From Closterium sp. NIES-65 (Eukaryota; Streptophyta; Zygnematophyceae; Desmidiales; Closteriaceae): 64,000 nt of DNA. Numbering within the stretch: position 1 is the stretch's first letter; every line of letters starts with the position of its first letter. This document shows positions 8,015 through 38,209 of this stretch, piece after piece. The notes beneath the pieces were generated by a model, which was not told the DNA's origin, made no database searches, and saw only the letters and a program-made list of their open reading frames with translations. Both the position numbers and the translations under genes were made by a program. The stretch is taken from assembly GCA_948144175.1 (NCBI GenBank), contig CANXME010002317.1, forward strand, positions 2,046,001 through 2,110,000. Reading direction: 5' to 3'.

Positions 8015-8060
8015 TTAATGTTTGGATTCACCTATGTGCGCACGCGCAATCTCCCCTTCC
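8015..8060 (+). pseudogene. CPBP protease exon, partial upstream copy
   Basis: Codons 8,024-8,056 read GFTYVRTRNLP, matching the first half of the exon at 8,128-8,234. The bases before it (cttgtcaca, then atgtttgg) resemble the acceptor side of that exon, so intron end and exon were copied together. The second half is lost. Confidence 0.7.
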
Positions 8061-8127
8061 CAACAATTCTGTTGCTTCTAATTACGCTCACACACACTGT
8101 CTCTATCCCTCTCCCCCCTTGTCACAG

Positions 8128-8234
8128 GATTGGTGTTGGGATTCACTTATGTGCGCACGCGCAACCTCCTCACGCCCATCATCGTCCATTCGGTCTGGAA
8201 CTCAGGAGTCATCATCATTCTCACCTTGCTGCGG
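8128..8234 (+). CDS. CPBP intramembrane metalloprotease, penultimate exon
   Basis: The exon lies between a pyrimidine-rich acceptor (cttgtcacag) and a strong donor (gtaaga). After two phase bases it gives 35 codons without a stop: LVLGFTYVRTRNLLTP, then IIVHSVWNSG, then VIIILTLLR. From family knowledge this is the C-terminal membrane part of plant CAAX-protease/CPBP (Abi, PF02517) proteins, in which the HxxxN motif (here H-S-V-W-N) supplies metal-site residues. The proteins are multi-pass membrane proteases, in plants often plastid-located; location cannot be seen here. The exon ends in phase 0, matching the terminal exon at 8,802. Earlier exons, including the EExxR motif, are not in the window and may lie left of the satellite. 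Three degenerate copies surround it. Confidence 0.8.
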
Positions 8235-8289
8235 GTAAGACCTTGTCTGGCTTGACTGGTAAGGCGTTGACTGGCTTGATTGCCTTTCC

Positions 8290-8361
8290 AACCTCCTCAC
8301 TCCGATAATCATCCATTTGGTGCGGAACTCAGAGGTCATCATCATTCTCACCTTGCTGCGG
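8290..8361 (+). pseudogene. CPBP protease exon copy, donor retained
   Basis: Reads NLLTPIIIHLVRN, then SEVIIILTLLR, followed by the same gtaaga donor as 8,128-8,234. HxxxN is kept (H-L-V-R-N). The first 13 or so codons of the exon are missing and no clear acceptor is visible. It could serve as an alternative exon only if an upstream acceptor exists. Confidence 0.7.
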
Positions 8362-8412
8362 GTAAGACCTTGCTATTTGAAGTGGTGGTGTTCAGCAGTT
8401 CCTCAATTCTTT

Positions 8413-8475
8413 CTCACTCCGGTAATCATCCATTTCGTGCTGAACTCAGGGGTCATCATCATTCTCACCTTGCAT
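8413..8475 (+). pseudogene. CPBP protease exon, third downstream copy
   Basis: Reads LTPVIIHFVLNSG, then VIIILTLHQ. HxxxN is again intact (H-F-V-L-N), but the donor has decayed and the sequence drifts after about 8,475. Spacing to the previous copy is about 120 bp, as between the two before it, so these are tandem duplications. Confidence 0.7.
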
Positions 8476-8801
8476 CAGTTGGGATGCTGGCACCCGCAAA
8501 CTGCCTTCGTTGCATTCCCAACCCCCTCTCTGAAACTCTGTTTATTGTCGATTCAACTATATGGAAACGGGGGGGTGTCTTTTCTCACCTTGCTGTTGGT
8601 TTTTCTTTCCCAACTGCTTGTTTTCAGTCGTCTCAGCTCAATACACACTTAGGTCGGGTTGGGGGGTAATAGTGGTTCTTCCCTCACTGCTGCTCGGTGC
8701 ATGTTGCTCCCCATCATCACTGCCTGTTTCAAGTAGACTCAACAATACACACATTCTTTCCTTGCCATGTTTCCTCTTGTTCCCTTCTGTTCTTTATTCA
8801 G

Positions 8802-8834
8802 ATGGAAGGATATGATATACAGGAGCTTATATAA
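8802..8834 (+). CDS. CPBP metalloprotease, terminal exon
   Basis: After a pyrimidine-rich acceptor (ttctttattcag) ten codons, MEGYDIQELI, end at TAA. Plant CPBP homologues typically finish with a (Q/E)GYDI(Q/K)EL-like tail just after the LTLL segment, and the phase joins without change to the exon ending at 8,234. The roughly 570-bp intron between the two contains the extra exon copies. The exon is short, so the assignment rests on the match, the phase and the position together. Confidence 0.7.
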   Translation: MEGYDIQELI

Positions 8835-8888
8835 GCGCATGGAAGTGACTTTTGACTTTTGACTCGCTTATATAAGCGCATGGAAGTG
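8825..8888. repeat. Duplicated tail of the terminal exon
   Basis: A 23-bp perfect direct repeat starting gcttatataagcgcatgg lies at 8,825-8,847 and 8,866-8,888. It covers the last codons and the stop of the CPBP gene, so even the final exon is partly duplicated. The core gcttatataagc is palindromic. Confidence 0.75.
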
Positions 8889-9683
8889 GAAATAGAGTGG
8901 TTCAAGAAGACCTAGAGGTTAGATTCTTAACAGTTTTATGGAAGTGCAAGATTTTATCTAACATCAAGCATTGCCGGTGTGTGAAATGTGGTGAAGTTGG
9001 CCAACACGAATCCAGAGTGCCTGTTTCCACTCATTAGAGTTCCAATCTGTTCACATCGCTCAGCAACCCATCCAACTATACACTACCATCATGTTAGGTT
9101 CTGTGGTTTTGTAGCATTGTGGCAGTGTGGCAATGTGTCTGTGTGTGCATCTCGTGTTTTGCTCGTACTCAGCCCAGAAGAGGTACTGTACTACACTTCA
9201 ATGGGACTAGAACTAGTACAATAAAGAGTCCTGTAGTACAGAAGAAATAAAAGCCCCATGGCACAGAAGAAATAAAACCCCCGTAGTACAGAAGAAATGA
9301 AAGCATGCTGTACAAGTTATACTGCCTGCAGAACTAAACCCCTAGTCTTTCCAGCACTGGACATGTTGCATTGGTGGCATGTTCATGTGAACCGGCAGAT
9401 CATATCACAAAAAACGAACATGGACACATCAGTACACATTCTGTCTCCATGTTCATATTCATGTAACATGCATACTAAGATTTTCACGCATGCTTTGCTA
9501 CTGAAAACCCCAACCAGCCCCTATCTGCATCCTAAACCAAAACATTGCCTCTCAACTTCACTAACCCGTTCAAAGAATCACATCATGTGACGTCTTACCG
9601 TGTTCCCCTCGACGCCATTTTCAAGCCCTGTCGAAGTTCCTTCGCACTTCACCTGTTACATCTGTGGGTGTCGAATCTGCTTA
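8889..9683. other. Intergenic, with AATAAA-bearing triplet repeat
   Basis: No gene is seen. About 9,220-9,305 holds three imperfect copies of a roughly 32-bp unit built on gtacagaagaaataaaa, each with an AATAAA-like signal. It could be the shared 3' end of the CPBP gene on +, some 390 bp beyond its stop, but poly(A) signals in green algae are often different, so this is weak. Confidence 0.4.
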
Positions 9684-10472
9684 TTACGGGTACCACGGCC
9701 GCCCGCTCCCATACAGGCGGCGGCTGTACATCTTGGGGAAAGACCAGGGGCGCCCGCTTCCCCATAGGCGGCGGCTCATCTTGGTCTTTCCGCCCGCCAG
9801 TGCGCCGTTGCCGCGGGGAACAGTTGGCTGCGGCGGCTCTGCGCGGATCTTCTCCTCCGCCTGAGCGGCGGATTCCTCCCGCGGAAAGTTCTCGAATCCG
9901 CGCAGCTGCCCTCCGCTGCTGCTGCTGCGCGTGCGGGGCTCCATCGCGTGGAACCCCCTTTCGCGGGTATCAGGGCAGTAATCATAACTCTGCTTATAGG
10001 CATATTTATTTGACATGTCAGCAGTAATCCCGTCAAACCCACCCCCGTTACACTGCGGGTAACCAAAGTCAGCACAGCCGGAATTCCCCGGGCACTGCAG
10101 GGAACTAATCCCCCACTCGATATCATCCGTGCTGGCCTGGTCGTAGCCGCTTAACTCGTAACCGGAGAGGTCTATATCGCAGCAACGCGCGACCTTGCGT
10201 AGGGTCCCCTGGCAGTCCTCGCAGTACAGCGCGCCGCGTTGAACGAGCGTGCACTTTCCCGAGCCGTCCGTGGCATAGCCGCTGCCGTAGAGACACGTGT
10301 GACGCCATCCGTTGCCGTTACAGAAGCTCAGGACGGCAACGGTCTCGCTGGCCTCGTTTGCACAGTCGAAGTTGAATGCGCGAACCGGAGCGAGTGGAAG
10401 GAGGAGGCAGGAAAGGAGGAGAGTCGCGAGGATTGTTTGGAGAAACGCAGGAAGAGCGTTTCCGGCCGTCAT
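9684..10472 (-). CDS. Secreted 12-cysteine protein with duplicated basic C-terminus
   Basis: A single-exon frame of 262 codons. Residues 1-32 form a signal peptide (hydrophobic LLLSCLLLPLAPV, cleavage likely after A32). The mature part has 12 cysteines between residues 37 and 166, including a CC pair at 97-98 and a C-x2-C at 84-87, which suits six disulfides in an extracellular or wall protein. Residues 167-231 are acidic/basic and low in hydrophobics. The last 31 residues are a tandem repeat, MSRRLWGSGRPWSFPK (232-247) and MYSRRLYGSGRPWYP (248-262), each with an RR pair and GSGRPW. An LYGSG also occurs at 61-65. I recognise no family. Codon use is GC-rich compared with the DNA around it. The C-terminal part could instead be spliced away; the start is the first ATG and directly precedes the signal peptide. 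Confidence 0.75.
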   Translation of the reverse strand: MTAGNALPAFLQTILATLLLSCLLLPLAPVRAFNFDCANEASETVAVLSFCNGNGWRHTCLYGSGYATDGSGKCTLVQRGALYCEDCQGTLRKVARCCDIDLSGYELSGYDQASTDDIEWGISSLQCPGNSGCADFGYPQCNGGGFDGITADMSNKYAYKQSYDYCPDTRERGFHAMEPRTRSSSSGGQLRGFENFPREESAAQAEEKIRAEPPQPTVPRGNGALAGGKTKMSRRLWGSGRPWSFPKMYSRRLYGSGRPWYP

Positions 10473-11441
10473 CGGCGCTAGTGACGCGTCGTCAGTATCA
10501 ATTGACGAGAGAAACCGAAACGAAGGAAACTGCTATCCTAAGTACTTGAAAACAAGAAGGAACGTTGAGATTCTATTAACGAAAGACGAGGAGTTGCGCA
10601 GAGGCGTTTATGGTATAGATGAAAATTTCGTGCTTTGAAGGAACCGGCTAGCTTCATAGATGTGAAAGTAATCGAGCTGGGATCTGCTGAGAAAAGAGGC
10701 TAAAACGAAATAAATAGATGCTGGACCAATGACTGCTTGGCAAACTCAACACCAAGTGAAGGGGGGAGGAGAGAAATCGGTACGGGAAGGGTGAGTGAGA
10801 TGCAAGCCAAAGCCCCACTCAAAGGTGCTGACAAATTTCTTGGGAAGAAATGAGTGAGTCTGGACAGCGATGCACGGAATGCGAATCGCGCCGAGTCACC
10901 TAGTTCGCCGTGCGATGCCACGCACGCATTTCTGGAGTCATGCTGTGCGCGTGCTCTTCGCAAGCTCATTTCGCGCGTTTCTTACCGAGTTGTGCAGGGC
11001 TGGAGGCTGACGAGACTGGCCCTAGCTGCTGCTCTGTTACGGCGTGAATGGCTGACGAAGAACTTCGCGAAGAGTTTCTCTGCTGGCAGTATCGTAACTG
11101 ACGTTGACTTCTTTGAGAGATAATAGCTGCGCCCTTTACAACCGAATTCGCTAACTGTGAGTAGACACTACCATCATCCATCCACCTCTCTAAGCGTGGC
11201 TTGAATGAGCATTAGTGGGCATCCACTAGGTGTAGAACAATTCAAGTACACTCATGTTCTACCTCCTCGTTCTAGATGTGTGCTTTTTCTTAGGCGCCTC
11301 AAAAGAACTCCTCTTTGTGCAAGGCCCCTGATGATGGAATGCTCTTCCTTGTTTTATATGTCTGTGTGCGTACACTGCCATTTTTTAGATGTCTCCAAAC
11401 GGTTATTCCTTGTTCTCGATATGTGTGTGACTGCAGTGCAG
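10473..11441. other. No gene recognised between the secreted-protein gene and EF-G
   Basis: Short overlapping frames on both strands have no recognisable product. The part next to 10,473 is likely 5' region of the minus gene. From about 11,340 the DNA shows intron-like repeats (ccttgtt...atgtgtgtg) that precede EF-G exon copies, so the EF-G intron probably begins before this point. Confidence 0.5.
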
Positions 11442-11474
11442 GATCCTCGCCTTGTGCGCATGCATGAAGTGGAA
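11442..11474 (+). pseudogene. Mitochondrial EF-G exon A, copy 1 (degenerate)
   Basis: Acceptor tgcag, then DPRLVRMHEVE, then donor gtgagg. This matches the EF-G domain II signature (V)PRLVRMHxxxME, with the middle codons shortened. A sister copy with full codon number follows about 115 bp downstream. Confidence 0.7.
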
Positions 11475-11556
11475 GTGAGGGTTGTTGGCACTGTTCAGCA
11501 GGTAGTGGGCACTGGACACTGGGCACCGGGCAGGCGCTACCAGTGTGTGACTGCAG

Positions 11557-11595
11557 GTTCCTTGCCTTATGCGCATGTACGATGATGACATGGAG
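11557..11595 (+). CDS. Mitochondrial EF-G exon A, best copy
   Basis: Acceptor ctgcag, thirteen codons VPCLMRMYDDDME, donor gtgagg. In plant mitochondrial EF-G the domain II strand reads KVPRLVRMHSNDMED, so length and phase agree (ends in phase 0, as does the following exon DIQE...). EF-G is the GTPase that moves tRNA and mRNA through the ribosome, here predicted for the mitochondrion from the plant form of the sequence. Two substitutions (R to C, H to Y) sit at usually conserved positions, which fits a relaxed or dead copy. N-terminal G-domain exons are not found in the window. Confidence 0.75.
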
Positions 11596-11664
11596 GTGAG
11601 GGGTGGGACTGGTTGGAGGGCAGTGGGCATGGGCAGTGGGCGGTGGGCGTTATGCGTTTGCATG

Positions 11665-11702
11665 CTGTTGTGCTTCTACGCATGCATGCAAACGACATGG
11701 AG
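11665..11702 (+). pseudogene. Mitochondrial EF-G exon A, copy 3
   Basis: Reads VVLLRMHANDME directly before donor gtgagt. RMHANDME is the closest of the three copies to the plant consensus, but the bases before it lack an acceptor AG. The Copia insertion begins 62 bp further on. Confidence 0.65.
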
Positions 11703-11764
11703 GTGAGTGGTTGCTGCAGAGCTTTTCATCGGGGACCTTACTGGTGGGGCAGGTAGGCACTGCA

Positions 11765-11896
11765 TGTCAGAACATTATAGCTTATGCTTTTGTGTAGGCT
11801 GTAGTGGGGTAGCCCATATGGGGTACAACCCAATTAGGGTTAGTACTTGTACCCAACTCTTTCATAGTGCATTCATTTCTCGTTTCAGTCTTCTCA
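11765..11896 (+). repeat. P1 5' LTR
   Basis: 132 bp, TG...CA ends, identical to 26,466-26,597. The primer-binding site begins at the next base. Confidence 0.93.
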
Positions 11897-13262
11897 TGGT
11901 ATTGAGCAGGTTCCCTCGTGGGAACTGTTCCTTGGGCCCACCGATTCGATTTTTTTTTTCCTGCCCGGAGCGCGTTCAGCCCTTGCCCGAGTCGCGCTCC
12001 CCCCTTTCTCACTGTGTCGCGCCGCCCTAGCGGCTGTGTCGCGCGGCCCTTGACGGCCCCGATCCGCCGCCCTAGCGGCCCTGTCGCCTACCCCGCGGCC
12101 CTCGAGCCGCCTTTCCCGGCCCCGATTCGCCGCCCTTTCGGCCCCGTCGCCTACCCCGCGGCCCTCGCGCCCCCCTTCCCGACCCGGCCCCGCCCTTGCT
12201 GGCCCCGTCGCCTACCTGCGGCCCCGACGCCTACCTGCGGCCCCGTCGCCTACCCGCGGCCCCGTCACCTACCTGCGGACCCGACGCCTACTTGCGGCCC
12301 CGTCGCCTACCTGCGGCCCCGGCGCTGCCCTTCCTGGCCCCGACGCCGCCCTTCGCGACCCGGCCCCGCCCCTGCTGGCCCCGTTGCCTAGCCCTGCGGA
12401 CAGGCAGGAGGAGTTCCAGTAGCCCCGCCCCTGCTGGCCAGTAGTGTGCTCTTGGCACGGACGTCCTTGAGGACAGGCAGGAGGAGTTCCAGTGTTTGGC
12501 TGCTGCTTCACCTCATCTCGTGTCCGTACTGCTTACCCCTGAGGGAGACCCGGATGCACTTGACATCCCGACTACACGCTCTTACGCGGAGGCGATAGAG
12601 GGTCCCTACTCCTCTCGGTGGCAGGCAGATATGGACACAGAGATGGCTTCCTGGAAGTCCACAGGCACCTAAGTTGACGAGGTTCCCCTGCCTGGGGCGA
12701 ACATCGTCAGTGGCATGTGGATTTTCAGGGTGAAGCGGCCGCCGGGTTCTCCGCCTGTCTTCAAGGCGAGTTACGTGGCCCGTGGCTTCAGACAGCGGCA
12801 GGGAGTTGACAACTTTCAGACCTTCTCTCCCACCCCGAAGATGACCACTCTTCGGGTACTGCTGCACATAGCTGCTCACCGCGACTACGAGCTGCACTCT
12901 CTTGACTTCAGCACTGCTTTCTTGCAGGGCAACCTGCACGAGGAGATCTGGCTGCGTCGCCCACCTGGCTTCACTGGGTCTTTTCCTCCTGGCACCCAGT
13001 GGAGCCTCCGGCGGCCAGTCTGCGGTCTCCGCCAGGCACCGCGTGAGTGGCACGACACACTGAGGACTACACTTGCGGCTCTTGGGTTTTCTCCTTCTAC
13101 TGCCGACCCGTCGCTGTTTCTGCGCACCGACACTTCTTTGCCGCCGTTCTACAAACTCGTGTATGTCGACGACTTGGTCTTTGCCATAGCTGACACTGCT
13201 GGACTCGCCCACGTGAAGTCCGAGCTGCAGAAGAGACACACGTGCACAGACCTGGGTGAACT
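11897..13262 (+). pseudogene. P1 leader and reverse transcriptase N-part (fossil)
   Basis: 12,000-12,400 is a GC-rich repeat with a cctac(c/t)tgcggccccg unit, and 12,460-13,262 matches the copia RT region: GMWIFRVKR, LDFSTAFLQG, YGLRQ-like and YVDDLVFA motifs in order. The frame carries one or a few breaks. The RT is cut by element N1 right after the TCTDLGEL segment, and the remainder resumes at 25,363. Confidence 0.85.
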
Positions 13263-13393
13263 TGAGAGAACTGAAACGAGAATGGATGAACTATGAACGA
13301 ACCGAGTACAAGTACTAACCCTAATTGGGCTCTACCCCTTATGGGCTACCCCACTATAGCCTACACAATACGCACAAGCTATATGTTCTAACA
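13263..13393 (-). repeat. N1 3' LTR
   Basis: 131 bp in reverse orientation, followed by the reverse-complement polypurine tract cacccccataggc. It differs at 8 sites from 25,232-25,362. Confidence 0.9.
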
Positions 13394-13603
13394 CACCCCC
13401 ATAGGCAAAGTGGGGGAGAACAAGGGGTCACAAGACCAGTCAAGCAAAGCAAAGCAAAGCAAGCTCAAGGTGGATCACAAAGTCACCACACATTCTGAGC
13501 ACAAGTTCAAGGCCACAAGGCCAGTTCACATGCAGGAGTACATATATATAAAGGACTAGACAAGCATGAGCAGGTGTATATATATGCAATAGTACAAGCA
13601 AGG

Positions 13604-23990: not shown

Positions 23991-23999
23991 GACAGCAGT

Positions 24000-26465: not shown

Positions 26466-26597
26466 TGTCAGAACATTATAGCTTATGCTTTTGTGTAGGC
26501 TGTAGTGGGGTAGCCCATATGGGGTACAACCCAATTAGGGTTAGTACTTGTACCCAACTCTTTCATAGTGCATTCATTTCTCGTTTCAGTCTTCTCA
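26466..26597 (+). repeat. P1 3' LTR
   Basis: 132 bp, no difference from 11,765-11,896, preceded by ttgcctatgggggtg. Confidence 0.93.
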
Positions 26598-26712
26598 TTG
26601 CACGTCCGCGTTGCATGCACAGTTCCACCATGCATGTGTGTGCATGCACTGCATGTTGCTGGCGTAGAGGTGGAAAGATAAATAACCAAGCCATCTCTTA
26701 GTACCCGCATAT

Positions 26713-26745
26713 TAGGCGCCGGGAGATTGTGGCTATGCAGCGTCT
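26713..26745 (+). pseudogene. EF-G exon B, fragment copy
   Basis: The bases ccgggagattgtggctatgc encode (G)REIVAM, a remnant of the AGEIVAMFGV strand of EF-G domain II. It is short, so its identity rests on the two clearer copies that follow. Confidence 0.45.
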
Positions 26746-26845
26746 GCCCCAGCGCAAGCCTCTTACATTTCTTTCCCATCTATCTGGGAATTCTGGCGCT
26801 GGGGAGAACTCTTTACCTGCGTGATGACTCTCCCACACAGCTCAG

Positions 26846-26900
26846 GACATACAAGAGGCTGGAGAAGGTGAGATCGTAGCCATGTTTAGAGTGGTCCTTT
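26846..26900 (+). pseudogene. EF-G exon B, copy with intact start
   Basis: After acceptor agctcag it reads DIQEAGEGEIVAMFRV. Plant EF-G has MEDIQEAHAGQIVAVFGVDC, so this copy joins exon A in phase 0 but decays after FRV and lacks the VDCATG end and a donor. Confidence 0.75.
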
Positions 26901-26975
26901 TTCAAGGCGTCTCAGAACCTACCATCTCATACACCCTCATCGTCCATCCGTCCCACATTTTTGTCTCCCTTGAAG

Positions 26976-27036
26976 GACAGTCAAGAGAATGATGCCGGTG
27001 AGATTGTGGACATGTTCGGAGTGGACTGCGCCACTG
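26976..27036 (+). CDS. Mitochondrial EF-G exon B, best copy
   Basis: Between cccttgaag and donor gtatgt it reads DSQENDAGEIVDMFGVDCAT plus one base. Domain II of EF-G at this point is DIQEAHAGQIVAVFGVDCASG. The left-over G joins GC-GAC at the start of exon C to give G-D-T, so the splice phase (1) agrees across the intron. This is the best evidence that these are true exons of one gene and not chance similarity. Confidence 0.82.
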
Positions 27037-27290
27037 GTATGTGGGTCAATATGGGACTTGCAATGTTCATTGTTTGCTTGCGTGAGGTGGGCACTGTTTC
27101 ATTGTTAACTTTCCTTTCTGCCACCTCTACCATGACTTTACATGCATGAACGTGCTCAATCCAGGCATACCATCTATGCTTGTTGCGACACCACATTTAC
27201 CTAATTCTTTACTCTCCCTTGCTCTCCCTCTCTTTTCCTGACACCCTCTCATTTCTCCCTTCTACCTCACTCACCCAACCACCAGCATGT

Positions 27291-27475
27291 GGCACCTTTA
27301 CGTATGGCTAGGTGTGCTTCACAATGACCGGCACGATGAACGTGGCCTCTCATCATGCTATGTCTGGTTTCTTTAGCACCATGCTTAGTCGCTCTTACTC
27401 TTGTGTATGTCCTTCATCCACCCACCTGGCGACACCTTTACAGATGGCTCAGTGCACTTCACCATGACTGTGTAT
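27291..27475 (+). pseudogene. EF-G exon C, first two degenerate copies
   Basis: Copy 1 (27,291-27,350) after accag reads GTFTYG, a stop, then VCFTMTGTMNV. Copy 2 (27,428-27,472) reads GDTFTDGSVHFTMT and then diverges. Both match the EF-G sequence SGDTFTDGSVKYTMTSMNVP. Confidence 0.75.
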
Positions 27476-28031
27476 GACTTCTTATGCACTGCTTGTGCAT
27501 GCTTACCTGAAACCGCACCCACCAGGCGGCACCTTCACAGATGGCTCGGTGTGCTTCACCATGACCAGCATAAACGTGCCCGCCCATCTTGCTATGTGTG
27601 GTTGCTTGCTATGGCACCACACTTACCTACCGTCTCTTGTACTCTCCTCTAATTCACACCCACCAGGCGATACCTTCACAGATGGCTTGGTGTGCTTCAC
27701 CATGACCAGCATAAACGTGCTCGCCCATCTTGCTATGTGTGGTTGCTTGCTATGGCACCACACTTACCTACCGTCTCTTGTACTCTCCTCTAATTCACAC
27801 CCACCAGGCGATACCTTCACAGATGGCTCGGTGTGCTTCACCATGACCAGCATAAACGTGCCCGCCCATCTTGCTATGTGTGGTTGCTTGCTATGGCACC
27901 ACACTTACCTATCGTCTCTTGTACTCTCCTCTAATTCACACCCACCAGGCGATACCTTCACAGATGGCTCGGTGCGCTTCACCATGACCAGCATGAACGT
28001 GTGCCTGAGCCCCGGGCTTGTTGCCTGCTAG
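27474..28031 (+). repeat. EF-G exon C tandem array, 141-bp units open in frame
   Basis: Four successive copies of exon C (about 27,524, 27,665, 27,806 and 27,947) with the intron piece between them. The unit is 141 bp = 47 codons, and one frame of 185 codons runs through all of them, exon part GDTFTDGSVCFTMTSINV and spacer HLAMCGCLLWHHTYLPSL. The exon part is in the EF-G frame each time, and each copy keeps the acceptor-like caccag. It ends in ...NVCLSPGLVAC. The open spacer could be chance or could mean the array is retained in a transcript. Confidence 0.8.
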
Positions 28032-28281
28032 TTACAGCACTGCACTAATCCTCTCCGCTACTCTCCTTGTGCTCGATTTGCTCCTCACCCATCATCTACC
28101 AGGCAAGACCTTCACAGACGGATTGGTGCGCTTCACCATGACCAGCATGAATGTGTGCCTGAGTCCCGGGCTTGTTGCCTGCTAGTTACAGTACCGCACT
28201 AATCCTCTCCGCTACTCTCCTTGTGCTCCATTTCGCTCCTCACCCATCATCTACCAGGCAAGGACCTTCATAGACGGATCA
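27946..28281 (+). repeat. EF-G exon C array, second unit type of about 155 bp
   Basis: From 27,946 the copies change to a longer unit: exon part GDTFTDGSVRFTMTSMNV, then tgcctgagccccgggcttg and a different intron piece ending catcatctaccag. Copies begin near 27,947, 28,102 and 28,257. The last is interrupted after tagacggat by the small LTR element, and its remainder is at 29,610. Confidence 0.8.
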
Positions 28282-28423
28282 TGTCAGAATGATGTAATTG
28301 TCTAGCCTGCAGTGGGGTACTCTATAGCGAGTACAACCCAACTAGGATTTCCTATATGTATCTCAACTGCTGCTAGTGCAAACCCCTTTTTCTTGTTCTA
28401 AACTTTCTCCTCGTTATTTCACA
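28282..28423 (+). repeat. Small element, 5' LTR
   Basis: 142 bp, TG...CA, adjoining the primer site at 28,424. Confidence 0.85.
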
Positions 28424-29467
28424 TGCTATCAGAGCCTGTCCTTCCTCGGCCTGTGGGCCCACCAACCTGCTTCCGCTGCTACTCGATCTGTCGCACGCCC
28501 CGTGGCGTGCGACGTATTGCGCGCGGCGATTTGCTCTCTGGCGCGCGCCCCGAGGCGCGCGGCCCCTTCTCTTCCTGGCGCGCCGGCCCTGCTGGACCTG
28601 CACGCCCACCCCGTCGACCCTCGCGTTGCCTCAGGGGACCCGCGCGCCACCCTTCTCGACCCTCGCGTCGCCCCCGGGGACCCGCGCGCCACCCCTGGAG
28701 CCGTACGCGACCCCCCCGCTGCCTCGTCGCGGCGCCCTAGGGAGCCGCGCGCGGCCCCTCGCTGCCCCGTGGTGGCGCCCTGGGGGCCGCGCGCCACCCC
28801 TGGAGCCGTGCGCGACCCCCCTTGCTGCCCCGTGGTGGCGCCCTGGGGGCCGCGCGCCGTCCCCCTCGCCGTCCCCCGCGCTCCTGCCCCGTGCCACCCA
28901 TTTTAGGGTTTGGGGGTGGGGAGTGTGGGGGTGGCGGTTGTGGGGGTGCCCGTTGTGTGCGCCGTCCCCTACTCCTCCTCCTCCTCCGTCTCCCGCTGCT
29001 GCAGCTGCAGCTCAGGGGGGGGTGGGTGTGTGGGAGCCGAAGGAGTGGTGCTAGGGGGGTGACGTGGGAGTGGAGCTACGGGTGCAGTAGGGGGTGTGTG
29101 CTAGGGGCGTGGGGCAGTTGGCGGAGGTTGAGCGGAGGTCGCAGTCGTGTCGCCAGCAGCACCAGTAGTCCGGAGGCTGCAATCTCCGGTAGTCGCCAGT
29201 CGCCTGTGGGTCAGTTGCTCCAGTCAGGAGGCTACAATCTCCGCGGAGCCAGTTACTCTTGTAGTCCGGGCCATTGCTTCGGTAGCCACTGAGCCAGCAG
29301 CTCCTGTGTGTCTGCAGCTTCCGCCGTCGCCTCCCATCTCCTCTCCTCTCACAGTCCCTCCTCCTCCTCACATGCCCTCTGTGACTACCTCTAGCTTTAC
29401 TTGGGCTTGTGAACTATTTTATGACTGCTTGTTCTGTTGATTACACCCCACTTTGGCTATGGGGGTG

Positions 29468-29609
29468 TGACAAAATGATGTAATTGTCTAGCCTGCAGTG
29501 GGGTACTCTATAGCGAGTACAACCCAACTAGGGTTTCCTATATGTATCTCAATTGCTGCTAGTGCAAACCCCTCTTTCTGCTTCTAAACTTTTCCTCGTA
29601 ATTGTGACA
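29468..29609 (+). repeat. Small element, 3' LTR
   Basis: 142 bp, preceded by the polypurine tract and followed directly by exon C sequence (gattggtgcgcttcacc). Confidence 0.85.
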
Positions 29610-29701
29610 GATTGGTGCGCTTCACCATGACCATCATGAACGTGTGCAAGCCCGTCATGCCTCTCTCCATCACCCCAGCTGCAAAAGACGGCGTAGCTGA
29701 G
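29610..29701 (+). CDS. Mitochondrial EF-G exon C, 3' part of last copy
   Basis: Reads LVRFTMTIMNVCKPV, then MPLSITPAAKDGVAE, then donor gtgagg. It is the only exon C copy that extends past TSMNV into the domain III start (plant EF-G: NVPEPVMSLAVQPVSKD), so it is presumably the original right end of the exon. Its left end is at 28,257-28,281, on the far side of the small LTR element. Confidence 0.78.
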
Positions 29702-29840: not shown

Positions 29841-29935
29841 AGTGACATGTATGCAATCATTCTGGAGCACGTGATGGGAGTGGAAGTGAAGGCAGTGTTG
29901 GAGTTTCAAGGAACGATAATTTGCAATATTAATAG
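29841..29935 (+). CDS. Mitochondrial EF-G exon X (domain V start)
   Basis: After gtggtgcag and before gtgaga the exon reads AIILEHVMGVEVKAVLEFQG, then TIICNIN plus two bases. Plant EF-G domain V begins PVILEPVMLVELKVPTEFQG, then TVAGDINKRKG. The protein between exon C (end AAKDGVAE) and this point, the rest of domain III and all of domain IV, well over 200 residues, is not found in the 140 bp between them. This is the main reason to regard the locus as a partial gene. Confidence 0.82.
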
Positions 29936-30015: not shown

Positions 30016-30055
30016 ACGCCTCTCAACGACATGTTTAGTTACTCAACAAGCATTT
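30016..30055 (+). pseudogene. EF-G exon Z, displaced copy
   Basis: Reads PLNDMFSYSTSI, matching the domain V segment VPLNNMFGYSTSLRSMTQ, but lies upstream of exon Y, out of protein order, and has no adjoining acceptor. It shows that exon copies are not confined to the immediate neighbourhood of the parent. Confidence 0.65.
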
Positions 30056-30545: not shown

Positions 30546-33500
30546 CTACAACAAGTGAAGAAATGTAGGCACCAGGCCTAGAGCAGTGCAGAAGCACTGA
30601 TGATCACCAACCAGAAGGGCCTTGGTGAACACATTAGCCGTGTTGGCCTGGGTGGGCACGTGAGCGACACGAAGCTGACCACGCTGCTGCAACTCTCGAG
30701 CAAGGAAGTAATGCAGAGCGATGTGCTTCGTTTTGTGCTCCAATCTGTGGTCCTAACACAAGGCAATGGCAGCCTTGTTTTCGACGTACAGAACTGGAGG
30801 AGAACGAGGCCTCTCTCCCAAGTCGGTCACCATGTAGGTGAGCCATGGCTGTGGCGTAGATCTCAGCCTCAAAACTAGAGCTGAGAACAGAAGACGAGCG
30901 TGTAGACCTCCAAGAAACAGAGCTAGAGCCAAGGCCGAACGTGTAACCCTGTGACGACCGCTGCGTAGCCAAGTCGTCAACCCAAGAAACGTCTGAGTGC
31001 CCAGTGCGGACAACTAAGCTCCGCCCTCCAAGAACGAGCCCCATGCCCGATGTACTGCACAAGTAGCGCAGTACTCTCTTCGCAGCATCCCAGTGTACCT
31101 TTCGGTGCCTACCAGGAGCCACGTAGCGTGCAAGAAGGCCAAGAGGTAATGCAAGGTCAGGACGAGTGCAGGTAATCAGGTACATGAGGCAGCCCACTAG
31201 CTCTGGGTACGGACCACTCGGCTCTACGGATTCGTCCGAAGGTGGAACTGAGAGCGAGTGGCCTGTAGCCAGGGGAGTGGACTATGGCGAGGACCAAGTG
31301 AAGCCGAAGCGCTGAAGGACCTGCATCACCATGTGTGACTGAGTCAGTGTGATGGTGCGCCGTGCTCTGTCCTGGGTGATCTGCAAGCCAAGGTAACTGC
31401 GCAGCTCACCCAGGTCTGTGCACGTGTGTCTCTTCTGCAGCTCCGAATTCACAAGGGTGAGAGCCTCAGTGTCATGAGTGGCAAAGACCAAGTCGTCAAC
31501 GTACACGTGGATGTAGAACGGTGGCAACGAGGTGTCGGTGCGCAGAAACAGCGACGGGTCAGCAGTAGAAGGTGCAAACCCAAGAGCCGCAAGTGTCGTC
31601 CTCAGTGTGTCGTGCCACTCACGAGGCGCCTGACAAAGACCGTAGACTGGCCGGCGGAGGCTCCACTGGGTACCAGGAGCGAACGACCCAGTGAAGCCAG
31701 ATGGGCGGCGCAGCTAGATCTCCTCGTGCAGACTAGCCTGTGAGAACGCTGTGCTGAAGTCCAGAGAGTGAAGCTCGTAGTCACGCTGAGCGGCAACGTG
31801 CAGCAGGACCCAAAGAGTGGTCATGTTCGGGGTGGGGGAGAAGTTCTGGAAGAAGTCAACTCCCTGTCGCTGACTGAAGCCTCGTGGAACATAACGAGCC
31901 TTGAAGACAGGCGGAGAACTCGGCGGCCGCTTCACCCTGAAAATCCACATGCCATCGACTACGTTCGCCCCAGGAGGGGGAACTGCGTCGACGTAAGTGT
32001 CTGTGGACTTCCAGGAAGCCATCTCTGCGTCCATGGCTGTCTGCCACTCAGAGGAGTACTCACCCACGATCGCTTCAGCGTAAGAGTGTGGGGTCGGGAT
32101 GTCTGGAGCATCCGGGTCTCCCTCAGGGGCAATCAGCGTGGACACAAGATGAGGCAAAGCAGCATGGCCACGAGATGAGGCGCAGTGGCTGCAAGACACT
32201 CAAAGTCCTCCCGCCGGTCCTCAAGGACGTCCGTGCCAAGAGCACACTCACCCCCGATGGACGGAGGACAGACAGATTCAGACTCAGCAACAAGACTAGC
32301 AGCAAGGTCGAGACGACAGGCAGCAGCAAAGTCAACAAGCTCAGAGACTAAGGCAGACGAAGCTGTAGACTCAAACGACGGGTCAGTGACAACAGTAGCT
32401 AGAGGACGCGTGACAGTAGGGTGAGTAGCACGAAACAGGTCAGATTCAGGGTCCAGAACGTTAGGCAAAGAAGACGTAGGAGGAGACGGTAGGGGAACAC
32501 GCTGTGGAACAGAGGAAGGACGAAGTGCCATAGCTTGCATGCCAGGGATAGGAGGCGGACGCTCACGAGGAACACGACTACTAGTGCGACGCGCGTGAAT
32601 AGGCGAGGCAGGACGAGACGCAGGCTCACGACTCTTTGTAAGTGAGTCTGTCTGCTCAATGTAAGGAGAAGGAGCAGGCAGTGGTGCGCCGGGCTGTAAC
32701 GGGAGGCTAAGAACCTGGTGAAGCACGGTGTCAGGCGGTGGCAGAGACGACGGTGATGGCGGAGTGAAAAATAGTCGCGGTGGAGCAGTGCCACCAGTAC
32801 CAGTAGCTCCAGCGCCTCCAGCAGCTCCAGAACCACCAACCCCAGGGCCTCCAGCAGCAGCACCTCCTCCTCCAGTGACTCCAGCAGCAGCACCTCCAGC
32901 TCCAGCGCCTCCTGCATTTCCAGAACCTCCAGCTCCAGCGCCTCCAGCAGCAGCACCTCCAGCTCCAGTGACTCCAGCGGCAACACCTCCAGCTCCAGCT
33001 CCTCCAGCAGCTCCAGGGCCTCCATCTCCCGCGCCACCAGTAGCAGCACCCCTAGAACCGGCACCTCCAGCCCCAGGGTCCCCAACTCCAGAGTCGACCG
33101 TACCAGCTATAGGGCCTCCAGCAGCAGCACCCCCAGGATCGGCACCTCCAGCTCCAGGGTCTCCAACGCCAGGGTCAATAGCACCAGCTCCAGGGCCTCC
33201 AGCCCTAGTACCTCCAGCAGCAGCACCCCCAGAGCCGACACCTCCAGCTCCAGGAGCAGTTTTAGTCCCGGCAGCTCCAGTACCTCCAGTACGAGCACCT
33301 CCAGAACCAGAGACACCAACACTCCCAGCGCCTCCACGACAAGCAGCTCCAGCAGCACGACTCCTCAGGCGGGTACGCGACGCAAGCCACTCTCGTGACT
33401 GCTGTGGTGAGATAGGCCCGCGTCGTGAAACGAGACCCAGAGGAACGCCAGCAGACTCAGCACCTCTCGACCCGGCACCCTCCGGCTCAGCACCCCCAGA

Positions 33501-35390
33501 CTCCGCAGCCGCAGGCTCAGCACCCCCAGGTTCCGCACTCCCCAGCACCTCACGCGCAGGCTCAGCACCCCCAGACGCAGACCCCCAACAGCACCTCCCG
33601 CAGCAGCACCTGAGTCGCTAGTGACCTCTACAGGCTCAGCCACGGGGGGCAAGTCTACTTGAGACAAACCTGAAGGAGCAGGACCCTGAGGAGGGAGGGG
33701 GTCTACCGGAAGGGGACCTGGAGCAAGGAATAGCGGCGGGGGAGGGAGAGGGGCAGTGCGGTAGGGGAAGAGATGGTAGAAAGGAACCGACTCGTCAAAG
33801 GTGACGTCTTGAGAGGGGAAGACATGGCACGAGGTGCGGCGGTAAAACTGCCAGCCAGGCGCGTCAGGGACAAAGCCAAGGAAGACACAGGGAATGGTGC
33901 GGGAGGAAAGCTTGTCCGCGGACGTATCGCGGACAAGGGCACGAGCACCCCAGACTTGGAAACACAATGCATCGCCAACCTCCCCCGTCCAACGCAGTGT
34001 GGGCGAGGTCTCCGGCAAGGAGACACGGGGCCAAAGGCTGAGCTGCCGCGCGGTGTACCGGACCGCAAACGGCCATAGAAAATGGGGAGCCGCCGCATGG
34101 ATCAAGGAGGTACAAGCGACCTCCATGACTAAGCCAATGCAGGCGCTCAGCAACCCCATTTTGCTGTGGTGAGCCCGGAAGCGTGAACGACTGCTCGGTG
34201 CCCTCCCCCTGACAGAAGGACCGCAAGAGGTCGTAGGTGAACTCACCACCTCTGTCAGAGTGCAGACGCAGGAAAGGAAGGTCCTGGCGAAACCTCCGGC
34301 AGAGCTGAAGACGATCTGCTCAGATCCAAGGGATCAGGACAGCAAGGACCTCACCCTTGGTGTGCAAGGGGAAGACCGTGGTGTAACGCGAGTAGTCGTC
34401 GACAACCAGCAGAAAGTACCGCTCACCGCCCTGACCACAAACGCGGGCTGGGCCCCACACGTCCAGTTGGAGGGCCTGCAGAGGAGCCTCTGTCGGGGGA
34501 AACGAGGAGGAGTGAGGAGCGGCGCGCTGCCGCCCCTTGACACAAGGAAGGCAGGGCGGTGCAGGGGAGGCAGGGAGGGGAGGGAGAGGCCTAGGAAAAC
34601 TAGACACTAGGAGGCGACGGTGCATGCCACGGAGATGTGAGAAGGAGAGGTGACCCAGGCGGTGGTGCCAGAGAAGAGTCTGGTGCGACAGGGAGCGACA
34701 CGAACAAGGGGAGGCTACGTGACCTGACGCAGAGACGTGACCAGAAGCAGCTACCTGAGGGGACGCAGTAGTCAGTGTGTAAAGACTCGACCCGGGCCGA
34801 CGGGTGAACGTGGCCAGATGATGGCCAGTCCGGGAGCACGTACAGATCGCCACACGCTGTCCTCCAGGGGTAAAGGTATCAACCCATGCATCCTGGAGGA
34901 CTGTGTTGCTCACCGGGTTCGTAGAGAACGAGGGGAGGTGAAGACCTGACAGTGAGCCGGACGGAACCGCCGGGCACGGAAGCACAGTGGAGGACTGTGC
35001 AAGAACTGGGCCCCCTTAGGGGTCAGCTAGAGACACTGCAACAGGTGCAGGGAGTGGCCTGAGTGCAGTACTGTCGCGAAAGAAACAGCGAGAAGCACCT
35101 GAGTCAAGCGAGAAGGTGTGCAAGGCGTCAGTAGGCGCAGTACCTTAGAGAGCAGACTCGCTAGCACCTAAGGCAGCAGCCTCAGTAGCACCTAGAGCAG
35201 CAACCTCTATACCGGGGTCGTACTGCACACACAAGTAACAGTCACCCTCAGCACCACCAGGCAAAGCATACATAGCAGTAAGGATGGTGTCATAGTCCAA
35301 AGCAAAGACATCAACACTCGACCTAAGCAGCTCAAGCCAGTGGGGGAGCTCAGCCTCGTCGCCAAAATCTGCGTGCCAGGCGTCACTCAA
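30546..35390 (-). pseudogene. Element E gag end, protease, integrase, RT and RNase H (fossil)
   Basis: Right to left: gag remnant (SDAWHADFGDEAELPHWLELL), HHCC motif (LLWHHRLGHLSFSHLRGM) and integrase (VVDDYSRYTTVFPL) at 34,320-34,985, integrase end at 33,365-34,249, a long GAGGAGA-type linker at 32,133-33,548, RT (YVDDLVFA) at 31,282-32,199, and RNase H (HSDVSWVDD) at 30,546-31,197. Overall about 80% or less like the other Copias by eye. It is heavily broken. Confidence 0.82.
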
Positions 35391-36548
35391 ATAGGCGAAG
35401 CAGCGGGACTATGCATGACCACGTGTCCCACAGGTCTGACCAGCTCGACGACCCGTGCGAATGACGTACGAGCAGCGACTAGGACTCGAAGACGTCCCAC
35501 GCTGGTAAAGCCACTTACGAAGCTGCTAGGACGTAAGATTCGGACGCTGCCGTAGCTGCATCTAGCCACCGCCAGAAACTCCGCACCAAACAGCGCCATA
35601 GTGACTGCTACTACGACCGCCACCACTCCCACTACTGCCACCACCGCCGTCACCACTCCCACCGCTACTACAGAGTGAAGTCATGGCGGGCAAGCTAGGA
35701 GGAGCGCGACCTCTAGGGCAGTACGTAGTAAAGGCAGTAGCACGAGGAGTAGCAGCAGAAGTAAGAGGAGCAGAGCGGCTAGGTGAAGCAATGCTGCATC
35801 CCCTCAAGCACTCCTAGCAGTACCTCCATCAGCAGCACCAGTAGCACGAGCAGCATGGCGGATCGGATCGGGTAGGGCGGCTTGGCTCGGCCTGGGCGGC
35901 GCGGGCAGCAGGGCGCGCGCTGTGCAAGGAAGCAGGGCACGACGCGCGTGCTGCAGCAGGGCACGACGCGTAGGGCAGCAGGGCGCGATGCGCGGGCTGC
36001 AGCAGAGCGCGACGCGTGGGGCAGCAGTGCTCGACTTGCGGGCTGCCGTAGGGCGCGACACGCGGGGCAGCAGGGCGCGACGCGCGGGCTGCAGCGCGGA
36101 GCAGCAGCGCGCAACGCGTGGGTTGCCGTAAGGCGCGACGCGCAGGGCAGCAGCGCGGGCGTAGGGGAGGGCGCAGGCGCAGGGCAGGGTGCTGGCGCAG
36201 GGCAGGGCGCCGGCGTAGGGTAGGGCGCTGGCGCAGGGCAGGGCGCCGGCGCAGGGCAGGGCGCTAGCGCGGGGCAGGGTGCTGGCGCAGGGCAGGGCAC
36301 TGGCGCAGGGCAGGGCGCTGGCGCAAGGTGACGCGAGGCACGGCAGGGCAGGGCAGGGCGTGCGCTAGGCAGCCCGACGCGGGGCAAGGCAGGGCGTGCG
36401 CAGAGCAGCGCGACGCGGGGCAGGGCAGGGCGTGCGCTGGGCAGCGCGACGCAGGGTAGTGGGGTAACGTGGTAACTGCAGTCGGTCGCTAAGTATGGTG
36501 GGCCCGGAAAAAAAAACACGGTCCTACGGACCTACTGCTCTGAAACCA
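35391..36548 (-). repeat. Element E 5' gag and leader, GC-rich repeats
   Basis: 35,390-35,830 holds glycine/serine-coding gag remnants, and 35,870-36,470 is a repeat of cagcagggcgcgacgcg and gcagggcagggcg(c/t)tggcg units. This is the leader position, as in the sister elements, but with a different unit. Confidence 0.75.
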
Positions 36549-36681
36549 TGTTAAGATAGCAAGCAGGGATGATTGCACTGAATGAATTGTGGGTACAAAT
36601 TCTAACCCTAATATTGGGTTCTACCCCACATGGGCTACCCTTCTATAGCCTACACACAACTAGCACAGATATGGTTTGACA
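36549..36681 (-). repeat. Element E 5' LTR
   Basis: 133 bp, adjoining primer site on the left and GATGT duplication on the right. Confidence 0.9.
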
Positions 36682-36773
36682 GATGTTTCATGTTTCCTTT
36701 TTTATGTGGTGTGCTTATCCTATATGTGTGTATGTGATCGCATGTGTGTGTTGCTCTGCTTGTGTCCACGATT

Positions 36774-36842
36774 GTGGTCAAGCGCAAGGGCATTATAGAG
36801 GGCAGTAAGCAAGATGGGTGTGACATCACCATCAACGCTCAA
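36774..36842 (+). CDS. Mitochondrial EF-G exon Y
   Basis: Reads VVKRKGIIEGSKQDGCDITI, then NAQ, before donor gtatgt. Plant EF-G: INKRKGIIVGNDQEGDDSVI, then TANV. It ends in phase 0, as exon Z requires. The left boundary is uncertain: no AG lies directly before the match. Confidence 0.78.
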
Positions 36843-36984
36843 GTATGTTACTAGTAATGTGTATCTGCGCGCGTCTGTGCATGAGCAACTGCGTGCACGT
36901 CTGTGCATGTTCATATGCCTTTCCTCAGTTCTCCCCCTTCATGCACTTCTGTGCTTTCCTTTTCCCCTACTTTCCCCACTTCAG

Positions 36985-37044
36985 GTGCCTCTCAACAACA
37001 CTCTTGGCTACTCCATAAACCTTCCTCTGCTCCAGGACACATAG
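36985..37044 (+). pseudogene. EF-G exon Z, degenerate copy with stop
   Basis: After a good acceptor (cccacttcag) it reads VPLNNTLGYSINLPLLQDT and then TAG. The first ten codons match VPLNNMFGYS; the rest does not. A cleaner copy lies about 215 bp downstream. Confidence 0.75.
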
Positions 37045-37201
37045 CACACCATTCTTCCTTCGTATTTCTCTCTCCAATTGTCTTCCCTATTTTTTCGTAG
37101 TTCTCTCTCCGATTTTCTTCCCTACTTTTTCCGCATTTCTCTCTCCAATTTTCCGTTCTTGCACCCTGTCCCTTAAACTTCCCCTCTTCTCTGCACTACA
37201 G

Positions 37202-37255
37202 GTCCCTCTCAATAACATGTTTGGTTACTCCAATTACCTTCGCTCCATGACACAG
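37202..37255 (+). CDS. Mitochondrial EF-G exon Z, best copy
   Basis: After ctgcactacag it reads VPLNNMFGYSNYLRSMTQ, nearly identical to plant EF-G VPLNNMFGYSTSLRSMTQ in domain V. The bases after CAG are gcgcgg, not a normal GT donor, so splicing at this copy would need a GC-type donor or is dead. A minisatellite starts a few bases later and may have replaced the donor. Confidence 0.8.
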
Positions 37256-37261
37256 GCGCGG

Positions 37262-37470
37262 GCATGAATGGGTGGAGTAGCATTCGGATGGGTGAAATGA
37301 CGTTAAGATGGGTAAAGTGGCATGTAGATGGGTGAGATGGCATTGAAATGGGTGAGATGGCATTGAGATGGGTGAGATGGCATGGAGAGATGGGTGAGAT
37401 GGCATTGAGATGGGTGAGATAACATCGAGATGGGTGAGAGATAGCATTGAGATGGGTATGTGAGAGGCTA
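37262..37470. repeat. 20-bp minisatellite in the EF-G last intron
   Basis: About ten copies of gatgggtgagatggcattga with small length changes, starting directly at the exon Z donor site. There is no coding role. Confidence 0.9.
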
Positions 37471-37664
37471 GCATCTAAAGCATGTGATGTGGGATAACAT
37501 TCGTGAACATCACATTTGTGCATTCACATGAGACCTACAAATCTGGCACGGATGCAGCAATGAGAGGCACGGACAAATGTTAGCAAGTTTGTATGGGCAT
37601 GCGTTGTTTTTTATGGAGTCTCAAAAACTAACATAGGTCTATCACCACAGGTGCCTAAACTTCC

Positions 37665-37723
<59 letters not shown>

Positions 37724-37774
37724 TGTTACATCTAGTCATGCATACTTCTCTTGAATTGCCCATATGCATTATAG
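37471..37774. other. EF-G last intron with 56-T run
   Basis: No gene. A possible third acceptor-plus-start of exon Z (caccacag followed by gtgcct) is at about 37,643-37,656, and an uninterrupted run of 56 T is at 37,666-37,721. The run could be the tail of a minus-strand retroposed sequence, but no body is recognisable. Confidence 0.7.
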
Positions 37775-37833
37775 GTAAAAGGGAGTTCACTATGGAGTAC
37801 TGGCAGCACAGTGTTGTGCTTCAGGATATGTAG
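37775..37833 (+). CDS. Mitochondrial EF-G terminal exon
   Basis: After gcattatag the exon gives (G)KREFTMEYWQHSVVLQDM and TAG. Plant mitochondrial EF-G has SMTQGKGEFTMEYKEHSAV near its end, so GK(G)EFTMEY is diagnostic and the protein here would stop about 20 residues earlier than the Arabidopsis form. A single base must come from the previous exon for this frame, which exon Z copy 2 supplies only with an irregular donor. Confidence 0.8.
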
Positions 37834-38209
37834 CCTCAACTGGTCTCATAACACAAAAGAGGATGGCACTAACATGGAGCTAAATGTAGCAAGAAAACAT
37901 TGATGATGTTTGTGTATGGGTAATAGGGAGCTCGGTATGGAGTACTGCAAGTAAAGCATAGTGCTGCACCTTGGTCTGGATGTGCGGCTATAGCTGGTGT
38001 TTGAACCAGAACAGAAGGCACTGGAATGGTACTAGATTGAGTGATCAAACAGTTCAGCTGTGGATATATGGTTAATACGGCATGGAGCTCTTTAAGAATC
38101 ATAAAAAAATGCATTGTTGTACCCCATCATGTGGAGCTGCAGCTAGCGCTGGAGCACAAGTTGCGAATCGGAACACAATTATTGTAGGAAACAGCTATAA
38201 AGCATAGAT
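37834..38209 (+). pseudogene. Degenerate copies of the EF-G terminal exon region
   Basis: 37,915-37,990 (gggtaatagggagctc...atggagtactgc...agtgctgcacc) aligns to the terminal exon over about 70 bp with many changes. A shorter match (ggttaatacggcatggagctc) is at about 38,068, and the stretch after it (gtggagctgcagctagcgctgg) repeats that after the first copy. These are therefore two decayed tandem copies of exon plus 3' flank. Confidence 0.6.

What the first reader, a model, noticed from the sequence alone, without database searches (positions are those of the whole stretch)
8015..38209. Exon arrays: single exons of two unrelated host genes amplified in place as degenerating copies
In both host genes visible here, individual exons occur as small tandem arrays together with their intron ends. 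The CPBP HxxxN exon is present 4 times and its stop region twice. EF-G exon A is present 3 times, B 3 times, C about 8 times, Z 3 times and the last exon about 3 times. Usually one copy in each array keeps splice sites and phase while the others drift. Copies include the acceptor and pyrimidine tract, so duplication happened at DNA level and not by retroposition. Array order follows protein order, so the process acts exon by exon. Two genes with the same pathology in one window suggests a genome-wide habit, not a local accident. Possible meanings are a mechanism that duplicates splice-site-bearing segments, a reservoir of alternative exons, or decay of a gene under repeated slippage.
Basis: partly seen in the sequence, partly recalled or inferred. 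Interest (0 to 1): 0.88.

Follow-up and report, generated by a model that had tools for sequence, protein, structure and literature searches.

The report
Stuttering exons grow a satellite
In two genes of an unidentified transposon-rich eukaryote, the edges of exons together with their splice sites were copied in tandem into the neighbouring introns, and one such exon edge appears to have grown into a 118-copy satellite DNA.

Summary
The exon copies are real. Six of nine recognised exons in two genes (a CPBP/Rce1-like protease end and a mitochondrial EF-G relic) have tandem DNA-level copies in adjacent introns, mostly partial (spacing about 97-217 bp, identity 62-98%). Corrections: HxxxN occurs 3 times, not 4; the third "last" copy is unsupported; the third B copy is weak; one Z piece breaks protein order.

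The main new result lies outside the given coordinates: the 65-bp, 118-copy satellite at 274-7959 resembles the acceptor tract plus 5' half of the adjoining CPBP exon (none of 6000 shuffles or 4416 other window pieces reaches the score; 1 of 2000).

Best reading: "exon stuttering", named in 2026 for chicken dot chromosomes (PMC12954441), here in a retroelement-rich genome without GC-rich exons. Exons are not targeted (P 0.20). EF-G is broken; the CPBP end looks intact. Third-codon-position excess (P 0.003) suggests selection on source exons while arrays grew. A genome-wide habit is untestable here.

The parts
274..7959 (+). 65-bp satellite, about 118 copies, resembling the acceptor tract plus 5' half of the CPBP exon
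   Evidence: TRF 118.2 copies, 96% matches; satellite HMM best two hits in the other 56 kb are 8086-8167 (E 0.0042) and 8101-8171 (E 0.031); alignment score 24 reached by 0/3000 and 0/3000 shuffles and 0/4416 other window pieces
7990..8060 (+). CPBP copy0: pyrimidine tract plus exon 5' half, acceptor AG lost (ACATG)
   Evidence: nhmmer E 1.2e-8; 59 of 67 identical to the exon edge
8128..8234 (+). CPBP/Rce1-like HxxxN exon, complete, acceptor CAG and donor GTAAGA
   Evidence: PF02517 E 9e-6; borders
8288..8372 (+). CPBP copy2: exon 3' half plus donor
   Evidence: nhmmer E 1.5e-16; 73 bp, 88%
8410..8485 (+). CPBP copy3: exon 3' half, donor lost
   Evidence: nhmmer E 6.3e-8
8802..8834 (+). CPBP last exon (MEGYDIQELI stop), by reading
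   Evidence: reading frame and acceptor
8825..8888 (+). 23-bp exact repeat of the stop region, spacing 41
   Evidence: p 0.0005
11421..11711 (+). EF-G exon A array: A1 11421-11482, A2 11557-11595, A3 11654-11711
   Evidence: nhmmer E 1.9e-5 (A1) and 9.5e-4 (A3) with A2 as query
26718..26751 (+). weak third copy of EF-G exon B
   Evidence: shuffle p 0.004; not found by nhmmer at E 1
26844..27036 (+). EF-G exon B array: B1 26844-26896 (donor lost), B2 26976-27036 (both splice sites)
   Evidence: nhmmer E 2.2e-4; borders of B2
27279..28163 (+). EF-G exon C array, seven 5'-half copies; 141-bp units 97-98% identical, then a unit at spacing 154, 91.5%
   Evidence: nhmmer E 1.5e-7 to 7.5e-22 for the six copies other than the query's own source; unit identities
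28258..29701 (+). eighth C copy, the only one that runs on into the 3' half (D, 29610-29701), split by an LTR element
28282..29609 (+). 1.3-kb LTR element inside exon C/D, TGTCA...TGACA, LTRs 131 of 140 identical
29841..29935 (+). EF-G exon E, single copy
30019..30044 (+). Z1, a piece of exon Z lying before exon K
   Evidence: 88% over 26 bp, 28.2 bits vs shuffled maximum 26.3; p 0.0005; nhmmer E only 0.16
36777..36842 (+). EF-G exon K, single copy; 5' border not resolved
36985..37255 (+). EF-G exon Z copies Z2 36985-37038 and Z3 37202-37255; acceptors kept, no GT donor
   Evidence: nhmmer E 2.5e-6; alignment; sequence
37268..37457 (+). 20-bp tandem array next to Z3, no exon recognised in it
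37775..37968 (+). EF-G last exon 37775-37831 and second copy 37920-37968
   Evidence: nhmmer E 1.2e-5; p 0.0005

Best explanation
This is local 'sequence stuttering'. Short DNA segments (about 20-220 bp) in and around introns are repeatedly duplicated in tandem, with breakpoints placed without regard to exon borders. When a segment overlaps an exon edge, the neighbouring intron receives a partial exon copy with its acceptor or donor. The source exon usually survives while the copies drift. At the CPBP exon an acceptor-side unit of about 65 bp kept multiplying, lost its AG and became a homogenised satellite of 118 copies. The EF-G gene was under selection while at least part of its arrays formed; it is now a relic broken by a retroelement, an early stop, a lost donor and missing domains. 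Shown: tandem copies, their borders, the likeness of satellite and exon edge, the relic state. Inferred: that the satellite descends from the exon, the order of events, replication slippage or error-prone break repair as the cause, unequal exchange or conversion as the homogeniser.
For: Self-matches at tandem offsets, absent from shuffles. Copies are exon edges with intron sequence attached. Exon overlap is not above a circular shift (P 0.20). A series of likeness: exon to copy0 59/67 identical, copy0 to satellite 45/59, satellite to exon 46/62; copy0 and satellite both lack the CAG acceptor (sequence; the acceptor columns of the satellite are not firmly aligned). The satellite's best two hits in 56 kb are the exon edge. 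C units 97-98% identical against 93.6% for the LTR pair in the same exon hint that amplification went on after the insertion (Fisher P 0.058). Mismatches by codon position 26/21/46, P 0.003, synonymous codons 22 of 68 against 22% expected, P 0.03: partial constraint, as expected from a constrained source and free copies. The anatomy agrees with exon stuttering as defined in PMC12954441.
Against: Only one window and two genes; segments are not independent. The satellite HMM match is weak by itself (E 0.0042), and copy0 alone does not stand out against shuffles (62 of 2000). Exon parts of eight copy pairs are a little more alike than intron parts (356/445 against 292/396), which could mean constraint on some copies. 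Exons E and K show no copies, and the D/E segment has no near-duplication. Length polymorphism within the species, a main feature of stuttering, cannot be tested. The LTR-versus-array age order misses the 5% level and gene conversion could fake it.
Confidence: 0.7

Rival explanations
1. A mechanism that recognises splice-site-bearing segments multiplies exons one by one, making a reservoir of alternative exons.
For: Six of nine exons have copies; A1 and A2 both keep splice sites; a third-position excess (P 0.003) would also arise if some copies were used.
Against: Breakpoints lie inside exons; 1 of 4 CPBP copies has both splice sites; no exon excess over circular shift (P 0.20); an array without a recognised exon exists (37268-37457); EF-G is not a whole gene.
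Confidence: 0.08
2. Ordinary minisatellite growth in dead pseudogenes, with no special link to introns or genes.
For: EF-G is a relic (human residues 410-462 and 644-721, plus exon A); retroelement tracts also have 21-34% near-duplication; short arrays occur in 8917-11199, 61701-64000 and 1-273.
Against: The CPBP end looks intact with both splice sites; the coding signal in copy differences points to live genes during array growth; three stretches without these genes have 0-12% against 36-60% in four of five gene segments.
Confidence: 0.17
3. The copies are assembly errors.
For: The 141-bp C units (97-98%) and the satellite copy number could be mis-assembled.
Against: Other copies differ by roughly 10-38% and lie in order with their own intron sequence.
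Confidence: 0.03
4. The satellite is unrelated to the CPBP exon; the likeness is chance.
For: Per-copy match E 0.09-0.99; satellite HMM E only 0.0042; copy0 alone reached by 62 of 2000 shuffles.
Against: 0 of 3000 shuffled monomers, 0 of 3000 shuffled targets and 0 of 4416 other window pieces reach the score of the exon edge (1 of 2000); the match lies directly beside the array.
Confidence: 0.12

Closest known systems
Sequence stuttering / exon stuttering of chicken dot-chromosome genes (Hron et al. 2026, PMC12954441; abstract, sections 7, 9 and 16 and passages read)
   Same: Tandem imperfect partial exon copies with the adjacent splice site in the neighbouring intron, units of tens to hundreds of bp, intron-only arrays beside them, local origin; paper: exon parts 20-187 bp (median 36), 1-44 copies, spans 112-23,555 bp.
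   Different: Probably not a bird (many Ty1-copia-like elements; plant- or alga-like by recalled resemblance only); exon GC 0.30-0.57; interspersed repeats abundant; one gene is a relic with broken exons, where the paper reports coding regions intact and no pseudogenes; one array has 118 copies and is homogenised.
Satellite DNA born from other sequence
   Same: Tandem array, about 118 copies, 96% matches.
   Different: The likely parent is a protein-coding exon edge still present beside the array. The review read in passages (PMC5615363) names rDNA spacers and transposable elements as seeds; the passages seen name no exon as a seed.
Tandem exon duplication with mutually exclusive splicing
   Same: Repeated copies of one exon in one gene (titles and abstract beginnings in the listing; details recalled).
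   Different: Copies are mostly partial, often without both splice sites, and the CPBP exon is not a multiple of 3.

Membership tests
[quoted passage not shown]
   CPBP and C/D at up to 74 bits vs shuffled maximum 26.3 (that screen missed A, B, Z2 and last); A, B, Z, last by nhmmer
Exon stuttering (PMC12954441) | Copied part is lateral and spans the exon-intron border with its splice site | tested here: met
   CPBP copy0 acceptor side, copy2 donor side; A and Z with acceptor-side intron; C units carry the acceptor
Exon stuttering (PMC12954441) | Copies proximal only | tested here: inconclusive
   Copies lie next to their source except Z1, which lies beyond exon K
Exon stuttering (PMC12954441) | Source exon left intact | tested here: inconclusive
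   Met for CPBP; EF-G C/D is split by an LTR element and Z has no GT donor
Exon stuttering (PMC12954441) | Intron length varies among individuals | not testable with these tools
   One sequence only
Exon stuttering (PMC12954441) | GC-rich genes in regions devoid of interspersed repeats (reported setting, not a strict criterion) | tested here: not met
   Exon GC 0.30-0.57; retroelements between exons
Satellite DNA | Long homogenised tandem array | tested here: met
   118.2 copies of 65 bp, 96% matches
Satellite DNA | Present at other sites or as heterochromatin | not testable with these tools
   No genome held; a 36-base pattern was absent from the prokaryote and viral collections, which says nothing about eukaryotes
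Mutually exclusive exons | Each copy has both splice sites and the same phase | tested here: not met
   1 of 4 CPBP copies has both; exon 107 nt
CPBP / Rce1-like (PF02517) | Family profile with HxxxN | tested here: met
   26.3 bits, cut-off 22.4, profile positions 61-92 of 93; the rest of the protein is not in the window
Mitochondrial EF-G | All domains present | tested here: not met
   Human residues about 396-462 and 644-721 of 751 only; no GTPase-domain hit in the frames scanned, which leave out the retroelement tracts

The most novel reading that the evidence does not exclude
Exon stuttering is not a bird-chromosome oddity but a general mode of intron growth and gene decay that also runs in transposon-rich eukaryotes without GC-rich exons. 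It can go all the way to a new satellite: the 65-bp array is a splice-acceptor/exon edge caught beside its apparently living parent, with an intermediate copy still in place.
Probability: 0.43. Interest if true: 0.75.

Novelty: new variant of a known kind. Interest (0 to 1): 0.58.

Why it matters
If right, it carries a phenomenon that the one paper found (PMC12954441) describes in birds and, data not shown, in GC-rich gerbil genes into a distant eukaryote without GC-rich exons. That would count against high GC and dot chromosomes as necessary causes. It also offers a readable series from unique exon to partial copies to satellite, so the origin of satellites and of large introns can be studied at one locus. 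Gene annotators would otherwise call such copies extra exons.

Tried and rejected
Exon-targeted duplication was tested by circular shift and not supported. One search included the satellite and was redone without it; the ten exon stretches of both used preliminary borders, counted C7 and D apart, and took 8801-8916 for the CPBP end. BLAST misses self-matches of short period, so an offset scan was added (one search is the BLAST version by segment). The comparison stretches 52801-55199 and 61701-64000 have rough bounds and include a few hundred bases of retroelement ends. The first codon-position count (29/25/39, P 0.16) had the wrong frame for the three C rows; the corrected count is (26/21/46, P 0.003). 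Both used 11 copy pairs that I chose because their frame was known, so they are not a random sample. Pfam and NCBIfam on stop-masked frames gave PF02517 above its cut-off, EFG_C and EF-G below theirs, and a few weak unrelated matches; short exons are below their reach. Other regions gave no family above cut-off in the frames scanned. Rfam gave nothing at gathering scores. The CPBP exon against solved structures gave nothing useful. Paper searches for exon-derived satellites showed no exon case in their titles and abstract beginnings; searches for partial exon duplication or intronic exon repeats in green algae returned no paper; the library lacks most subscription papers. One search returned one paper holding at least two of its three terms. 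Listings gave nothing direct. The Drosophila Y paper (PMC8794474) was read in passages only. The organism was not identified; green lineage is a recalled impression. One search aligned three of its seven ranges onto themselves; those rows were dropped.
Full report
WHAT IS THERE. The window is eukaryotic, with several Ty1-copia-type retroelements (polyprotein frames; family by recall) and little host DNA. Two host genes can be recognised on the plus strand. One is the end of a CPBP/Rce1-like protease: exon 8128-8234 matches PF02517 above its cut-off, and a last exon 8802-8834 reads in phase with it. The other is a mitochondrial EF-G. Exons E+K+Z3+last match the human protein at E 2.6e-19 (residues 644-721) and B2+C6+D tail at E 9.5e-8 (residues 410-462); exon A adds the stretch from about residue 396.

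EF-G IS A RELIC. About 395 N-terminal residues have no match in the frames scanned (retroelement tracts were not scanned). About 180 residues between D and E are missing where only 139 bp separate the two exons. An LTR element (28282-29609, LTRs 131 of 140 identical) splits exon C/D. Neither of the two clear Z copies has a GT donor. The last exon stops soon after TMEY, where the human chain runs on for some 30 residues. The CPBP end shows no such damage.

THE ARRAYS. Self-BLAST, nhmmer with each exon and an offset scan against dinucleotide shuffles agree. Of nine recognised exons, six have copies: the CPBP HxxxN exon (4 stretches, three with HxxxN), A (3), B (2 plus 1 weak), C/D (8), Z (2 plus a 26-bp piece) and last (2). 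The end of a seventh, the CPBP last exon, lies in a 23-bp repeat. Exons E and K are single. A third "last" copy is not supported (p 0.40). Z1 at 30019 lies before exon K, so order is broken once. Copies carry intron sequence and acceptor or donor. Most are partial. CPBP copies upstream of the exon are acceptor-side halves and those downstream are donor-side halves, just as tandem duplications with breakpoints inside the exon would give. A screen built like that of PMC12954441, but with a shuffle threshold of my own (100 shuffles, maximum 26.3 bits), finds CPBP, C/D and Z1 only; it misses the A, B, Z2 and last copies.

IS IT ABOUT EXONS? Near-duplications cover 41% of 7,676 bp of host DNA once tandem-repeat rows are added; BLAST alone gives 37.6%, and 0 in each of 20 shuffled versions. 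Six of ten listed exon stretches lie in them, against a mean of 4.16 under circular shift (P 0.20). So exons are not singled out. What stands out is the gene segments: 47, 36, 60, 0 and 47% by the offset scan, against 7, 0 and 12% in 8917-11199, 52801-55199 and 61701-64000. A fourth comparison stretch, 1-273, has 37%; it lies beyond the satellite and may be CPBP intron. The sample is small and the bounds are rough. Retroelement tracts also show 21-34%, partly from low-complexity coding repeats.

SELECTION OR DRIFT? In eight copy pairs exon parts are 356/445 identical and intron parts 292/396 (sums). In 11 chosen pairs mismatches fall 26/21/46 on codon positions (P 0.003), and 22 of 68 changed codons are synonymous against 22% expected (P 0.03). 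This fits a constrained source exon and freely drifting copies, so the arrays probably began in live genes. The 141-bp C units (137/141 and 138/141) look younger than the LTR insertion in the same exon (131/140), Fisher P 0.058. Amplification may therefore have gone on after the gene broke.

THE SATELLITE. A search of the window with the CPBP exon picked up dozens of weak matches in the 65-bp satellite at 274-7959 (E 0.09-0.99). In reverse, a satellite HMM searched against the remaining 56 kb has its two best hits at the CPBP exon edge (8086-8167 E 0.0042; 8101-8171 E 0.031); of four hits in all, one (27317, E 4.2) is elsewhere. An alignment score of 24 was reached by 0 of 3000 shuffled monomers, 0 of 3000 shuffled targets and 0 of 4416 other pieces of the window (maximum 18). 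An earlier test gave 1 of 2000 shuffles for the exon copy and 62 of 2000 for copy0 alone. The unit corresponds to the pyrimidine tract plus about 45 nt of exon. Identities run exon-copy0 59/67, copy0-satellite 45/59, exon-satellite 46/62. Copy0 and the satellite both lack the CAG acceptor, though the alignment around it is not firm. The simplest history is exon edge to degenerate copies to a homogenised satellite, right beside its parent and probably inside the CPBP intron (upstream exons lie outside the window). This descent is inferred, not shown.

COMPARISON. Hron et al. 2026 (PMC12954441; abstract, sections 7, 9, 16 and passages read) describe the same anatomy as "exon stuttering" in chicken dot chromosomes. 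[quoted passage not shown] The present genome differs: exon GC is 0.30-0.57, retroelements abound, one gene is a relic and one array has become a satellite. One search returned no other paper with at least two of its three terms.

MECHANISM. Shown: tandem copies, borders inside exons, a broken EF-G, the likeness of satellite and exon edge. Inferred: slippage or break repair with template switching makes the first duplications, and unequal exchange or gene conversion expands and homogenises them. The cause cannot be told from one sequence.

VERDICT. The exon-directed and reservoir readings are not supported. The genome-wide claim is untested. The satellite link is new to this finding and is its most interesting part.

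Noticed in passing
9684-10532 (-): Open frame of 282 aa (stop to stop) with a signal-peptide-like start and many cysteines (impression from the sequence), no Pfam family above cut-off; in a stretch with little duplication, though a 34-bp repeat at spacing 51 sits near its 3' end.
   Followed up: partly
28282-29609: 1.3-kb LTR element with about 140-bp LTRs, too short for a full polyprotein, TRIM-like by recall, inserted in an EF-G exon.
   Followed up: partly
45075-50279 (-): Ty1-copia-like frame of 1734 aa without a stop, containing two copies of a 306-bp unit (84% matches) at 47454-48080.
   Followed up: no
37666-37721: Uninterrupted run of 56 T between EF-G exons Z and last.
   Followed up: no
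13-119: Duplication of about 30 bp at spacing 75 upstream of the satellite, possibly in the same CPBP intron.
   Followed up: no
274-7959: Satellite monomers vary mainly at one base (C or G at position 26, about half each), mixed along the array rather than in blocks.
   Followed up: partly
11760-11769 and 26590-26605: Flanks of the large element in EF-G carry near-identical five bases (CTGCA and TTGCA), a likely target-site duplication, read by eye.
   Followed up: no
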